A DNA stretch of 32,840 bases from a virus. Of the stretch, positions 4,072 through 32,733 are shown piece after piece. The stretch is taken from positions 1-32,840 of the IMG/VR virus record IMGVR_UViG_3300031539_000171; one strand, written 5' to 3'. Position 1 is the stretch's first letter, and every line of letters begins with the position of its first letter. The notes beneath the pieces were generated by a model that saw only the letters and a list, made by a program, of their open reading frames with translations, did not search any database and was not told the origin of the DNA. A program made the position numbers and the translations under genes.

Positions 4072-4197
4072 AAGTCTCCTGACTGTGAGTGCCTTCTTAG
4101 GCAGCCATAGCCATTTCATTTTTATTTACGCCGTTTATTGCGTTCCTGAGACCTACTCATCGCTACTTTCATATGCAATCAAATCCATGTCAGCCCC
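4072..4197 (-). ncRNA. tmRNA coding piece (5' half with tag reading frame)
   Basis: The mature 5' end is predicted at G4197. In order follow the acceptor strand, the D-region, the P2 5' strand and a hairpin TGAG/CTCA enclosed by GCG/CGC, probably the PK1 position. The resume site comes next, then the tag frame. With resume at GGC (4130-4132) the tag is GVNKNEMAMAA followed by TAA (4097-4099). With resume at GCA (4139-4141) it would be AINGVNKNEMAMAA. I prefer GGC because the five bases before it (TAAAC) resemble known pre-resume contexts, and Bacteroidota tags start with glycine. The stop lies in a small hairpin TGCC/GGCA. The 3' end of the mature piece is not defined by sequence. Confidence 0.85.
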
Positions 4198-4364
4198 TTT
4201 CGCCGAACTGTTCTCGGCGGTCAGGTTATTTATCCATGGCTTATAACCAAAGCACTATTGGATATAAAAATTTCTACCGGCCCTATCGTTACTCATTTAT
4301 GTGTTTTTGTCTTGCTTCTCTGCAACGGTCACCATTTAGGTCGTAACCCGAGGTAGAAATTTAG
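4198..4364 (-). other. Intervening segment of the permuted tmRNA precursor
   Basis: These 167 nt join the 3' end of the acceptor piece to the 5' end of the coding piece and should be excised. An 11-bp perfect inverted repeat (4268-4278 with 4352-4362) closes most of the segment right behind the acceptor end. A CGCCGA/TCGGCG hairpin (4201-4219) sits three bases before G1, at the expected RNase P side. No ORF of note is seen. Confidence 0.75.
4268..4362. repeat. 11-bp inverted repeat closing the tmRNA intervening loop
   Basis: AAATTTCTACC (4268-4278) and GGTAGAAATTT (4352-4362) are perfect reverse complements. The right arm begins three bases from A73 of the tmRNA acceptor end, so the stem probably presents the pre-tmRNA ends to processing enzymes. 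Confidence 0.7.
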
Positions 4365-4434
4365 TGGAGCTGCGGGGACTCGAACCCCGGTCTTACATAC
4401 TAACCTCACGACTAGACACTTTTGGTGTCGAGTC
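4365..4434 (-). ncRNA. tmRNA acceptor piece (3' half)
   Basis: It holds, in transcription order: a 5' hairpin GACT-C-GACAC/GTGTC-T-AGTC (plus 4410-4434), the P2 3' strand TATGTAA, the linker GAC, a perfect T-arm, the acceptor strand CAGCTCC and the discriminator A. The mature 5' end is uncertain; the hairpin may be part of the piece or a processing signal. The 3' CCA must be added after transcription because the DNA reads CTA. Confidence 0.85.
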
Positions 4435-22452: not shown

Positions 22453-23943
22453 TTAAAACAAATCGTGACCAGTTATTTTTGGATCTCCTTCATTTTTATT
22501 TTCTTTCAGTTCAGATAATGTAGGGGAAGGGTTTTCCGTCGTCATTACCGATCCAACAAATGCTTCCGGCGATCCCATTCTACCTCCTCTTGGACCTCTA
22601 TGCCCAGGAGGATGAACAACATTATTAATAATAAAGTCCATATCTTGAATTGGGGAATTTTTATCTTCTTCAATTCTTGCATATTTCCATTCTATTGTAT
22701 ACCTCTTTTTTGTATTTTCTAATCCGGCTACTCGGTTGGCAAGACATTTTAAATAATACTCACCCCTTGCTTTCATTTCAGCATTTGTAATGATACCAAA
22801 TAATACATCCACTGTATGTAATAAAGCTCCTGATTCTGCAATTTGCGTGATATTTAAATCATTACTTTCCCAACCACCTCTATTTGTTTGAGTTGCTGTG
22901 ATAACTGCCCATTTTTCTTCCATTGCCATCGCCCTTAAATCTTCGGCAATTTGCTTGATTTTCATGTAAGTATTTTCGGTATTAGGATTTCTCCAGTTTT
23001 TCATAATGTTAATGTAGTCAACAAAAACATTATCAAACTTAATTCCTAAAACTTCTTCAGCTTTTTTCAAATAAGTTCTTAGATCATTAACTGAACATGT
23101 TGATGCTCCGAATTCTTTGGTATGTAAAATTCCTAAAGGAATAATTGATGATTGTCGTGCATTAGCTATTTTTGTTTTTAATTTATCTTGATCTTTAGCC
23201 CACTCCTCATAATTATCTAATGGAATTGTGAACATGTTAGCTCCAATTCTCATATTGATAATTTCTTCTTGCAATTCAAATGAAACATACGCTGTGTTAT
23301 GTCCCGTTTGAACTGATTTTAATGCTAAATTACCAAGCCATGTTGATTTACCGGCTTTTGGGCCGGATAAAAATGCAATAAGAGATCCTTTCCACCATCC
23401 ACCTTTAAGACATCTATCAATATAGTCATATCCTGTTGGGGTTCTTGCTAATCTAGTTTGAAGGTGAGCAGTTGGATCAAAGAAATCAGATCCAATATTG
23501 AATCCAAAATCTATTGCTGTTTCACTGGAAAGCATGTGTCTTATTTTCTCAACAACCTCACTTGCATTTTCTGCATTTACATTAGTTGTTCTCATAAACG
23601 CAATGGCTTTCCTCATTACGTTATCTAAATTTCTTACTTGAATCCAAGGTGATATATTGTTTTCTAGCCATTCTTCACCATATTGGCCTAAAAGAGCTTT
23701 AGTGTTATATAAACCCTCTAATTGCTCTTCACTATATTTTTCACCAAGTCCCTTGACACGAATAAGTGCCACCATTTGTTCTTTAGTTGGCGGTTCCTTA
23801 TATTTAAGTGCATGTTCCTTTGCTATATCAAATAATTCTCTTAACTCCTGATTCTGAAAAAATTCCGATTTTGTTACATGTAGAAATATTTGATTGTCAA
23901 GTATGTAATGAAAAAATATTTGCTCTTGATACGCGTTATTCAT
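22453..23943 (-). CDS. 41: Replicative DNA helicase, T4 gp41 / DnaB-like
   Basis: A hexameric 5'-3' helicase unwinding DNA ahead of the polymerase. The 496-aa protein has an N-terminal helical domain (1-~140) and a RecA-fold motor: TGYDYIDRCLKGGWWKGSL, Walker A GPKAGKST (194-201), the H1a-type AYVSFEL strand, Walker B NVFVDYINIM and ITATQTNRGG (sensor Q). It ends with a Gly/Pro/Arg-rich flexible tail (PPGHRGPRGGRMGSP) and a terminal GHDLF. The order uvsX - small genes - 41 mirrors uvsX-40-41 in T4. No gp61-type primase is in the window. Confidence 0.93.
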   Translation of the reverse strand: MNNAYQEQIFFHYILDNQIFLHVTKSEFFQNQELRELFDIAKEHALKYKEPPTKEQMVALIRVKGLGEKYSEEQLEGLYNTKALLGQYGEEWLENNISPWIQVRNLDNVMRKAIAFMRTTNVNAENASEVVEKIRHMLSSETAIDFGFNIGSDFFDPTAHLQTRLARTPTGYDYIDRCLKGGWWKGSLIAFLSGPKAGKSTWLGNLALKSVQTGHNTAYVSFELQEEIINMRIGANMFTIPLDNYEEWAKDQDKLKTKIANARQSSIIPLGILHTKEFGASTCSVNDLRTYLKKAEEVLGIKFDNVFVDYINIMKNWRNPNTENTYMKIKQIAEDLRAMAMEEKWAVITATQTNRGGWESNDLNITQIAESGALLHTVDVLFGIITNAEMKARGEYYLKCLANRVAGLENTKKRYTIEWKYARIEEDKNSPIQDMDFIINNVVHPPGHRGPRGGRMGSPEAFVGSVMTTENPSPTLSELKENKNEGDPKITGHDLF

Positions 23944-27413: not shown

Positions 27414-27746
27414 TCATTTAATGTTTTTCATAATCTCAAATGCTTTGAATAAATCAGCTGGAGCATCATGATCAATTTCATTTTCCTCTTCATATTTCTT
27501 TAGAATTGGATAGTAATTACATGTCATGCACTTTCTACTAAAACAATCCCTATGAATCCAAGTACCTTTTTCATCCCATATATCAGAACATCCAAACTTT
27601 ACTAATTCTTTGTATTTTTCTTCATCTGCACTACCAGGAATTTGCTGGTTTGGGTATGTTAATTTTACACCTGATTTTTCTTCAACTTCTTCAATTGTTA
27701 TCCAACCCTTTTTTTGCTTCCACTTTTTCTTTTTAAATAGTCTCAT
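27414..27746 (-). CDS. Hypothetical Cys-containing protein (110 aa) behind the polymerase
   Basis: It begins with a strongly basic stretch (MRLFKKKKWKQKKGW) and continues with an acidic helix (TIEEVEEKSGVKLTYP). The segment GCSDIW...HRDCFSRKCMTC holds four cysteines and a histidine, enough for a zinc site. The ATG shares one base with the polymerase stop (TAATG), so translation is coupled. A DNA-binding or polymerase accessory role is possible from context only. Confidence 0.65.
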   Translation of the reverse strand: MRLFKKKKWKQKKGWITIEEVEEKSGVKLTYPNQQIPGSADEEKYKELVKFGCSDIWDEKGTWIHRDCFSRKCMTCNYYPILKKYEEENEIDHDAPADLFKAFEIMKNIK

Positions 27747-28921
27747 TAGAATAAACTTTTTGCATAGATTAAATTTCCTGGAACTGGATTAAATCCAGCA
27801 GAGGTCATAAATCTATTAAATGGTTCTATAATAACTTTTTCAAACTGCAAATCATAATCAACTTCTGGTGCTATTTCAAATGGATAATCACCCGGTAAGA
27901 ATCCAAAAACTTCTAGATCACTTTTTGCATAATAATGCTTTATTTTATCACCTGTTCTGATTAGATTATACTTTGTCTTCCATTTTGTATTTAACATTGT
28001 ATGATTATAAACAGAAGCAGCCCTTACATTTATTGGGCATTTAGGTGCTAATCTAATTTCATTTCTATCTTCTAAAACATATTTTTCATAATCACCAATT
28101 GAAACTGTTTTAGATATTTCATTTGGTTCTTGCATTACAAATTGCTTTTTATATTCTTTTAACAATTTTACTACATCCGCATATTCAATCTTTTTGCCTT
28201 TTGCAAATAAATGGTTTAATAATTCTTTAAGAACTCTTCTTGAAAATGGTGGTGTTGATCCTTGAACTACTTCAACACCAACAGGAACAATTTTTTGTTG
28301 AGGTTTAAAATAAATTCCTGGATCTTTCCATGCCAAGTCTAAAATATATTTCTTCTTGGCAACCATTAATGATGAATATGAAATTTTCTCTAATTCTAAA
28401 TCTTGAAGATTTTTAGTATTATATTTCTTAGCATATTCATCAAATTTAAGTTTGATATATCCTTCTAATCTTAATTTTTTAATTTTAAGAATTAATTCTC
28501 TTGGATCACCTTTCCAATCACAAGATTCTAAAACAGGTCCAAGTGTTATATATGTAGAGTCAGTATCATTATAAATTACAATTGTTTTTGCTAGGATTTT
28601 GTTTACAAATTTTAATCCAAGTGCCTCATGCAATTTTTTATCAAGATGCCATTTATTTAAGAAATAATCATCTAAAAAATCATTAGAATACTTAATCATA
28701 TCTTGACCCTGCAAAGTAACAGCCTCTGCAAGTGCAACATTATAACACTCAAACCACGGTGATCCTACTCCACCATAAATAGAGTTAATAAAAATTTTAA
28801 TGGATTGTTCAAGATTAAAATATTCTTCTTTTAAAAGCTTTAATCTTTCTATTTCCTTATCAATTTCTTCTACAGAACATGTAGTTGGATCAATATTAGT
28901 TAATTCAAACTCAAAACTCAT
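27746..28921 (-). CDS. 43: DNA polymerase family B, C-terminal fragment of a split T4 gp43-type enzyme
   Basis: This 391-aa ORF has its own ATG and lacks the 3'-5' exonuclease and palm motif A. It starts with a helix (EEIDKEIERLKLLKEEYFNL) in the fingers. Motif B follows (KIFINSIYGGVGSPWFECYN, ~42-61), then motif C YNDTDS (117-122), the KKKY primer-contact motif (189-192) and the thumb. It ends LIYAKSLF, similar in place to the SLDFLF clamp-binding tail of T4 gp43. The missing half is not in the window, since upstream lie a 59-aa ORF and phoH. Split gp43 genes are known from some T4-like phages. Two polypeptides must assemble for activity. Confidence 0.88.
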   Translation of the reverse strand: MSFEFELTNIDPTTCSVEEIDKEIERLKLLKEEYFNLEQSIKIFINSIYGGVGSPWFECYNVALAEAVTLQGQDMIKYSNDFLDDYFLNKWHLDKKLHEALGLKFVNKILAKTIVIYNDTDSTYITLGPVLESCDWKGDPRELILKIKKLRLEGYIKLKFDEYAKKYNTKNLQDLELEKISYSSLMVAKKKYILDLAWKDPGIYFKPQQKIVPVGVEVVQGSTPPFSRRVLKELLNHLFAKGKKIEYADVVKLLKEYKKQFVMQEPNEISKTVSIGDYEKYVLEDRNEIRLAPKCPINVRAASVYNHTMLNTKWKTKYNLIRTGDKIKHYYAKSDLEVFGFLPGDYPFEIAPEVDYDLQFEKVIIEPFNRFMTSAGFNPVPGNLIYAKSLF

Positions 28922-28971: not shown

Positions 28972-29151
28972 TCAATTAAGACATATGAAATTTGGCGGCC
29001 AATCATTATACCTAAATCCCAGAAATATTTTATGTTGCATTTTTTCATTTTCAATAGTAGCCACTTGTTCAAGGCGGATAAAATCATCAGCAGAAATTTT
29101 ACTTTCATTGAACCAGTAAAAAACCATATTTGTATAGTCTTGTTCTTCCAT
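28972..29151 (-). CDS. Small hypothetical protein (59 aa)
   Basis: MEEQDYTNMVFYWFNESKIS begins this acidic, aromatic protein, which ends in WPPNFICLN. It fills the space between phoH and the polymerase fragment, with ~50 nt AT-rich spacers on both sides. No family is recognised. It is not homing-endonuclease-like, so it does not explain the polymerase split. Confidence 0.55.
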   Translation of the reverse strand: MEEQDYTNMVFYWFNESKISADDFIRLEQVATIENEKMQHKIFLGFRYNDWPPNFICLN

Positions 29152-29203: not shown

Positions 29204-29950
29204 TTAAGCTATTTTATCTAAAACTTTAAGTACTAACGGAATTATTGGATTTCTGACACATTCTTCGGCGGTAAATTCAACAGTACCAACAAATTCTTCT
29301 TCCTTAAAAGCTTTAAATACTCCCGCTAAACAAGAATCATTTCCTTTTCTATCAATCTGCTCAATATCTCCAAGAAATATCATTTTGCTATTTTTTCCAA
29401 TTCGAGTAACGATAGTTTTAAATGTATGCATATCAATATTTTGAGTTTCATCTATGATAACAATTGAATTGTCCATAGTGTTACCTCTTACATAAGCAAT
29501 TGGTTCAATGGAAATCATTCCAGCCTCCATCATTCGTTGTGATGTTACTCTATCTCCAAAGATTTTGTTTAAATTACCCAAGTAAGACCACATATATGGT
29601 TCCATTTTTTCTTGCAAAGTTCCTGGAAGAAAACCTAGTTCCTCTCCTTTAATAGTGGTTACTGATTTAATTAACACAATTTTACGATACTGTGGTTGTG
29701 ATTTTAATAAATGGAGCCCGGTTATTAAACTTAAATAAGTTTTACCGGTTCCTGCGGGGCCAATAGCAATTGTTACCTCCTTTTCTTCTATGGCTTTTTT
29801 TAGTTGTTTTTGTTTTTCATTTAAACATTTAACTTCTATTTTTTTATTCTGTAAATCTAGTGTTTGTTTGTACTCGATTCTTTGTGAGTGATCTTCCCAT
29901 GTATAAACATCTTTAAGATCATCGGCGGATAAATTTTTTTTCTTAGCCAT
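29204..29950 (-). CDS. phoH: PhoH-like ATPase
   Basis: A predicted RNA-associated P-loop ATPase, common in marine and other large phages. The 248-aa protein has Walker A GPAGTGKT (64-71), the KIVLIKSVTTIKGEELGFLPG segment typical of PhoH (R/K-x-V...GEELGFLPG), Walker B NSIVIIDETQN and the GDIEQID sensor-like motif. It lacks an N-terminal PIN domain. Its cellular role is unsettled; links to RNA decay and phosphate stress are reported for the family. A palindrome lies ~25 nt upstream. Confidence 0.92.
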   Translation of the reverse strand: MAKKKNLSADDLKDVYTWEDHSQRIEYKQTLDLQNKKIEVKCLNEKQKQLKKAIEEKEVTIAIGPAGTGKTYLSLITGLHLLKSQPQYRKIVLIKSVTTIKGEELGFLPGTLQEKMEPYMWSYLGNLNKIFGDRVTSQRMMEAGMISIEPIAYVRGNTMDNSIVIIDETQNIDMHTFKTIVTRIGKNSKMIFLGDIEQIDRKGNDSCLAGVFKAFKEEEFVGTVEFTAEECVRNPIIPLVLKVLDKIA

Positions 29951-31950: not shown

Positions 31951-32733
31951 TCAATCTTTTTCAACCATTGATATGACTGTGGTTGTGTTTAAATCATGAG
32001 ATGAAAATACTAATCTATCATCTCCCATTTTTACATTATAGTTTTCAACATCAATACTTTCAAATTGCTCTTTGAATACATTAATTGTTTGTTCTGATCC
32101 ATCATGTTCACCTGGATTCTCTCCAATAAGTAGATCAAAAGTTTTTCCACTTACATAAACATTTGCTGCATTCTTAAATTCCATGAATTTATACTCACTA
32201 TCTAATGAACATAATGAATTTACTTTTTCAATATTTTCTGAAGAAAGTTCAAATTTTGCTACAACATCATCTAATGCTGCAATTCTATCTACAAATAATT
32301 CATCAGAAATATATTTGAAAATATTAAGAGAAGTACAATCTACAGTAATTTTTAAACTTTTGTTCTTAAGAACTAAATTTAATCCTGCGAACTCAGTTGA
32401 ATTATCACCTGTGACTTCATCATAATTTACCGTAAATGAAAATTCTTCAGATCCAAACTGATCCATTACTTTCATTAATCGAGCAATGTTATAAATACCA
32501 ACTTTAACTCTTTGGGGGTCTTTTGATTTTTTAACAGTTAATCCTGCTTCATCGAATTTTATCTTTGAATACTTGACAACTGAACGTTCTTCGTTGTACG
32601 TTTTTGCTATGAACAAAGATTCATTTTCATCAATCTCTAAAAGAAGTGATTGATCTATTGAAACGAATTTTTTAAGCCATGTAGAAAAGGCTTTAACATT
32701 TTTTGCTGAGAATTCAATTTTTTTAGCTGCCAT
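31951..32733 (-). CDS. 45: Probable sliding clamp (T4 gp45-like)
   Basis: A trimeric ring protein that tethers the polymerase and, in T4, also activates late transcription through gp55. The 260-aa length is close to T4 gp45 (228). Clamp-like features are the strand-rich repeat plan, VKVGIYNIARLMKVMDQFGS (compare VAIYDLNGFLGILSLV in gp45), a second-domain helix (SENIEKVNSLCSLDSE), and the final strand pair YNVKMGDDRLVFSSHD / TTTVISMVEKD. Identity is low and no catalytic motif exists, so this rests on pattern and on nearby phoH and polymerase genes. A 13/14 late-motif variant lies upstream. Confidence 0.65.
   Translation of the reverse strand: MAAKKIEFSAKNVKAFSTWLKKFVSIDQSLLLEIDENESLFIAKTYNEERSVVKYSKIKFDEAGLTVKKSKDPQRVKVGIYNIARLMKVMDQFGSEEFSFTVNYDEVTGDNSTEFAGLNLVLKNKSLKITVDCTSLNIFKYISDELFVDRIAALDDVVAKFELSSENIEKVNSLCSLDSEYKFMEFKNAANVYVSGKTFDLLIGENPGEHDGSEQTINVFKEQFESIDVENYNVKMGDDRLVFSSHDLNTTTVISMVEKD

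What the first reader, a model, noticed from the sequence alone, without database searches (positions are those of the whole stretch)
27746..28921. Split family B DNA polymerase without a visible mobile element
The ORF begins inside the fingers, just before motif B, and has its own start. The exonuclease and motif A half is not upstream in this window; phoH and a 59-aa ORF are. Split gp43 in some T4-like phages was tied to a homing endonuclease, but none is seen here, and the two halves are well separated.
Basis: partly seen in the sequence, partly recalled or inferred. Interest (0 to 1): 0.62.

Follow-up and report, generated by a model that had tools for sequence, protein, structure and literature searches.

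The report
C-terminal half of split phage polymerase
This gene makes only the second half of a large phage's DNA-copying enzyme; relatives keep the matching first half as a separate gene tens of thousands of bases away, and this two-gene arrangement is conserved across huge phages, so it is most likely a genuine working part and not a broken gene.

Summary
ORF 27746-28921(-) encodes 391 aa of family B polymerase from the second fingers helix to the C-terminus (motifs B and C, KKKY). It has its own start, shared by relatives from other assemblies. It is not a remnant: dN/dS is about 0.12, all catalytic residues are present, and long relatives hold no intact PolB and no recognisable family A or C polymerase. 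The window is colinear with a 322.9-kb relative whose N-half (exonuclease, motif A, first fingers helix, 478 aa) lies 30 kb upstream on the same strand, beyond the window's edge. Other relatives have the halves 22-58 kb apart; Lak and other huge phages range from about 6 to hundreds of kb, sometimes on opposite strands. The junction is always the fingers tip (T4 gp43 ~501-526). The same site is split, with halves close together, in PAU, MA9V-1, pT24 and, independently, in Acinetobacter ZZ1 and Aeromonas 25. No intein or endonuclease was found at this junction. Some relatives carry a second break, a split intein at motif C, making a three-gene polymerase. Most likely the halves assemble non-covalently, as shown for Aeromonas 43A/43B. 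A new variant of a known kind.

The parts
27746..28921 (-). PolB C-terminal half (fingers helix 2, palm, thumb), 391 aa, own ATG
   Evidence: PF00136 and phrog_1918; dN/dS 0.11-0.12
28799..28921 (-). residues 1-41: N-terminal segment with conserved start, then fingers tip/second fingers helix before motif B
   Evidence: aligned start and helix in window, L002-L004, L005, L010, G010, G011; the tblastn match to Lak begins at residues 4-5
28772..28798 (-). motif B KIFINSIYG (residues 42-50)
   Evidence: alignment with T4 K557...NSLYG
28556..28567 (-). motif C DTDS (residues 119-122); site of a split intein in relatives, uninterrupted here
   Evidence: intein pieces in L005, L010, Lak, LR756500
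28346..28357 (-). KKKY motif (residues 189-192, T4 KKRY 702-705)
27749..27775 (-). C-terminal tail NLIYAKSLF; possible clamp-binding peptide like the T4 gp43 C-terminus (inference)
   Evidence: tail conserved across C-halves; function not tested
28972..29151 (-). 59-aa ORF directly upstream, unknown; similar-length diverged ORF at the same place in the 322.9-kb relative
29204..29950 (-). PhoH-like ATPase, neighbour
   Evidence: PF02562 E 8e-58
22453..23943 (-). DnaB/gp41-like helicase, neighbour in the replication cluster
   Evidence: PF03796
24547..25905 (-). RecA/UvsX-like recombinase, neighbour
   Evidence: PF00154

Best explanation
The ORF is the C-terminal subunit of a naturally split, functional replicative family B DNA polymerase of a large T4-related phage. 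The N-terminal subunit (about 478 aa) is a separate gene on the same strand, predicted about 26-27 kb past the window's end, where the colinear relative G003 has it. The break lies at the tip of the fingers, so the first fingers helix (QRKxxKK) is on one chain and the second (KxxxNSxYG) on the other; the catalytic aspartates are likewise divided (motif A on the N-half, motif C on the C-half). The two proteins would fold together without covalent joining into one polymerase-exonuclease; neither half has a complete active site. Shown: sequence, boundaries, conservation, selection, co-inheritance, and absence of an intact copy in relatives. Inferred: the window's own N-half, physical assembly and activity.
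For: Domain content and start. N-half and C-half as separate ORFs with no intact PolB in the long relatives G003, G005, G011, G012 and in all six huge-phage records examined. Complementary, non-overlapping coverage of RB69 gp43: 107-503 by the N-half, 557-815 by the C-half. Junction at the fingers tip in every split pair. Catalytic residues present across the two halves. dN/dS 0.10-0.12 for C-halves and 0.06-0.22 for N-halves (dS is high, so approximate). No family A polymerase and no credible PolIII alpha in ten long records. The window is colinear with G003 52,177-85,572, with the N-half at 111,835-113,271 on the same strand. N and C trees correlate, r = 0.93, 0 of 5000 permutations as high. 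Aeromonas phage 25 43A/43B co-purify and are active (PMC2988022).
Against: The window's own N-half is not in hand because the contig ends first. No structure or biochemistry supports assembly here: AlphaFold models from shallow alignments were poor (C-half pLDDT 47; N-half 62). Correlated trees are also expected from plain vertical inheritance. A divergent or host-encoded polymerase could do the bulk of replication; Iyer et al. report a minimal split PolIII-like protein in group 2.2 jumbo phages (PMC7824862).
Confidence: 0.88

Rival explanations
1. It is a decaying remnant of a polymerase gene, with an intact enzyme elsewhere in the genome.
For: The window is a fragment, so the genome is not fully seen.
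Against: Strong purifying selection and intact catalytic motifs, and no intact PolB in long relatives; the same half-gene is conserved in Lak and other huge phages.
Confidence: 0.03
2. The halves are joined after translation by a split intein, as proposed for Nanoarchaeum PolB, so that the working enzyme is one chain.
For: Relatives do carry split inteins, at motif C.
Against: No intein-like sequence at the end of any N-half or the start of any C-half at the fingers junction; N-halves end within or just after the fingers helix.
Confidence: 0.03
3. The window's PolB gene is truncated by an assembly or chimera error at 28.9 kb.
For: The N-half is missing from the window.
Against: Contigs L002-L004 have the same start and upstream stops; colinearity with G003 runs straight through the junction.
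Confidence: 0.01
4. The C-half is expressed alone and serves another role (for example, regulation) while a host or unrecognised phage polymerase replicates the genome.
For: Iyer et al. describe a second, minimal PolIII-like protein in related jumbo phages (PMC7824862).
Against: Each half is conserved with its share of catalytic residues, and the halves co-occur in the longest records; the C-half sits near helicase, recombinase and gp46/gp47-like genes.
Confidence: 0.05

Closest known systems
Split gp43A/gp43B of T4-like phages (Aeromonas 25 and 44RR, Acinetobacter ZZ1)
   Same: PolB broken at the same fingers tip (tested for 25 N-half and ZZ1), each part with its own start; 43A/43B of phage 25 co-purify and are active (PMC2988022)
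   Different: There the halves are close together (under 2 kb) with a seg endonuclease, an untranslated insert or small ORFs between; here they are 22-58 kb apart in near relatives with no mobile element seen, and the tree places the split as a separate event
Two-gene polymerases of Bacteroidota-type jumbo phages PAU (gp105/gp110), MA9V-1 (ORF135/138), pT24 (gp165/gp168)
   Same: Same 100/100 clade and same junction
   Different: Halves only about 1.2-2.4 kb apart
PHROGs phrog_1918 (C-half size) and phrog_2062 (N-half size)
   Same: The half-proteins match these families nearly end to end
   Different: The families are simply labelled 'DNA polymerase'; the pairing is not stated
Archaeal split PolB3 (Methanobacteriales; Nanoarchaeum equitans)
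   Same: PolB from two genes, non-adjacent in Nanoarchaeum (PMC4104785)
   Different: Nanoarchaeum's halves carry split intein parts; none is present at this junction. Archaeal junctions were not aligned here
Rhodothermus phage RM378 polymerase
   Same: PolB polymerase domain in a gene apart from the exonuclease (the latter from memory)
   Different: One 532-aa ORF covers PF00136 41-378, so motif B and C are not separated from the palm start as here; the break lies elsewhere

Membership tests
Family B DNA polymerase | motifs B and C and KKxY in this protein; exo I-III and motif A in the partner | tested here: met
   KxxxNSxYG, DTDS, KKKY here; DIE, WNxxxYD, YxxxD, DFASLYPS in N-halves of relatives
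Split gp43 of T4-like phages (43A/43B) | junction at the fingers tip with independent starts | tested here: met
   T4 ~507-526 for the huge-phage clade, ~501 for ZZ1, ~509 for Aer25
Split gp43 of T4-like phages (43A/43B) | halves close together with inserted endonuclease, untranslated sequence or small ORFs | tested here: not met
   G003 gap 30.1 kb, others 22-58 kb; no endonuclease at the junction
Split gp43 of T4-like phages (43A/43B) | same origin as the Straboviridae split | tested here: not met
   T4/ZZ1/Aer25 and the huge-phage clade are separated by supported branches with intact genes between; at least 2 changes forced by starred branches
Split gp43 of T4-like phages (43A/43B) | halves co-purify and are active together | not testable with these tools
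   needs protein work
Split-intein fractured gene | intein N-part after the first fragment and C-part before the second | tested here: not met
   for the fingers junction; met only at motif C in relatives L005, L010, Lak, LR756500
phrog_1918 half-size PolB | end-to-end match | tested here: met
   residues 9-377 to 10-368/382, E 5.9e-59
RM378-type exonuclease/polymerase split | palm start, motif B and motif C in one ORF, exonuclease apart | tested here: not met
   motif A is with the exonuclease in this clade

The most novel reading that the evidence does not exclude
The polymerase of this clade of huge phages has been a two-gene, often unlinked enzyme since its common ancestor, and separate expression of the halves is used to gate or dose replication; in relatives with the motif C split intein, replication additionally depends on protein trans-splicing, giving a polymerase assembled from three genes.
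Probability: 0.2. Interest if true: 0.68.

Novelty: new variant of a known kind. Interest (0 to 1): 0.46.

Why it matters
The replicative polymerase of very large phages is kept as two genes, often far apart, over large evolutionary distance, although close-together and fused versions exist. This bears on how an essential enzyme tolerates being cut through its dNTP-binding fingers, why the same loop has been cut repeatedly, and how annotation of huge phages misses split enzymes (half-size polymerases are recorded as separate families). It also marks a permissive site for splitting PolB enzymes.

Tried and rejected
AlphaFold models of each half were too poor to compare with solved structures, so no fold search was run. 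A first joint alignment of unfused N- and C-halves misplaced them; it was redone with halves joined per genome. The single PF07733 hit in G003 (13.3 bits, below cut-off) falls in the region matching the portal gene and was rejected. Literature searches for a published account of unlinked PolB halves in Lak or related phages found none in the open library; subscription papers such as Petrov 2010 could not be read, only a review of them. Remnant, assembly-error and trans-splicing readings were tested and set aside.

Full report
What is there. ORF 27746-28921 on the minus strand (391 aa, ATG) is the C-terminal half of a family B DNA polymerase: PF00136 positions 155-352 and phrog_1918 nearly end to end. 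The motif B lysine is residue 42, DTDS of motif C is 119-122, and KKKY is 189-192. Its start aligns with T4 gp43 residue ~517, the tip of the fingers. The window is a 32,840-base virus record, and no N-half is in it.

The start is real. Contigs L002, L003 and L004 encode the same protein at 82% identity with the same start and in-frame stops 1-11 codons upstream. An assembly error is thereby excluded. dN/dS between the window, L002 and L004 C-halves is 0.10-0.12, with dS near 1, so the gene is under purifying selection.

The other half. In the 322,902-base relative (G003) PF00136 is found in only two ORFs: an N-half with exonuclease and motif A (478 aa, 111,835-113,271, minus strand) and the C-half (80,535-81,707, minus strand), 30.1 kb apart. 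The window is colinear with G003 52,177-85,572, so the window's N-half is expected about 26-27 kb past its end; this is a prediction, not an observation. In further relatives the gap is 22 kb (G005), 48 kb (G010, G012) and 58 kb (G011), with N upstream of C on the same strand. In Lak-A2, LR756501, LR756504 and LR745206 the halves are roughly 100 kb or more apart and on opposite strands; in Lak-B5 and LR756500 they are about 6-10 kb apart on one strand. In these long records no intact PolB was found, and in the ten tested no family A polymerase and no credible PolIII alpha.

The junction. With halves joined per genome and aligned to intact enzymes, every N-half ends and every C-half begins at T4 ~501-526, the length-variable fingers tip. 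Profile searches of solved structures agree: N-halves cover RB69 gp43 107-503, C-halves 557-815. The first fingers helix with QRKxxKK is on the N-half, the second with KxxxNSxYG on the C-half; exo I-III and motif A are on one chain, motif C and KKKY on the other. Neither half can therefore hold a complete active site. No intein-like sequence or endonuclease was found at this junction.

Evolution. A tree of joined sequences, tip columns removed, puts the huge-phage splits and those of PAU, MA9V-1 and pT24 together with intact Flavobacterium phage MaF61 on a 100/100 branch, separate from T4-like and cyanophage enzymes. A single split in this clade is not rejected (p-AU 0.18); MaF61 is a long branch and its place is unsure. 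The Acinetobacter ZZ1 and Aeromonas 25 splits, at the same site, fall among intact Straboviridae, so the site was cut at least twice. N and C trees correlate (r = 0.93). Cultured members PAU, MA9V-1 and pT24 have the halves 1.2-2.4 kb apart.

A second break in relatives. In L005, L010, Lak-A2, Lak-B5 and LR756500 the C-half is itself divided at DTD|S by a split intein: N-part 116-124 aa, C-part 43-47 aa ending HN; in L005 and L010 intein_Nterm TIGR01445 and intein_Cterm TIGR01443 score over their cut-offs (Pfam Intein_splicing). L005 has a 382-aa ORF between the pieces, without a Pfam match; from its position it may be a homing endonuclease (inference). The window's gene is uninterrupted there.

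Mechanism. The best-supported reading is non-covalent assembly of two separately encoded chains into one polymerase. The precedent is Aeromonas phage 25, whose 43A and 43B co-purify and have activity (PMC2988022); the archaeal split PolB3 is a further parallel (PMC4104785). Assembly and activity here are inferred. The origin of the break (lost mobile element, or simple fission followed by gene movement) cannot be told from these data.

Novelty. Splits at this site are known, and half-size polymerase families are already in PHROGs. What I did not find described in the open literature is the unlinked arrangement, its conservation through Lak and other huge phages, and the three-gene version. Jug phages were reported to have polymerase genes split by endonucleases (PMC12363816), and the passages of a jumbo-phage survey that I read do not mention the PolB split (PMC7824862). 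I therefore call it a new variant of a known kind.

Noticed in passing
window 4097-4413 (-): Permuted tmRNA gene in a phage genome: Rfam RF04321, 67.2 bits against a gathering score of 47; ARAGORN also calls a tmRNA here (tag GVNKNEMAMAA).
   Followed up: partly
L010 9001-10843, 13954-17084, 17690-20424: Three replication genes (PolB C-half, UvsX, DnaB-like helicase) in one relative appear interrupted by intein sequences, with free-standing ORFs near the UvsX and helicase breaks.
   Followed up: partly
window 28972-29151 (-): 59-aa ORF between phoH and the polymerase half; the 322.9-kb relative has a diverged ORF of similar length at the same place.
   Followed up: partly
window 31951-32733 (-): 260-aa protein conserved at 72% in G003, no Pfam or PHROGs match; from its size and place it could be a sliding clamp (guess).
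   Followed up: no
L079 3953-6937: Flavobacterium phage MaF61 has an intact 994-aa PolB within the clade of split enzymes; it could be a re-fusion.
   Followed up: partly
L036, LR756501 C-half: The C-half protein is about 170 aa longer than the window's in this 735-kb phage, with extra N-terminal sequence among the additions.
   Followed up: no
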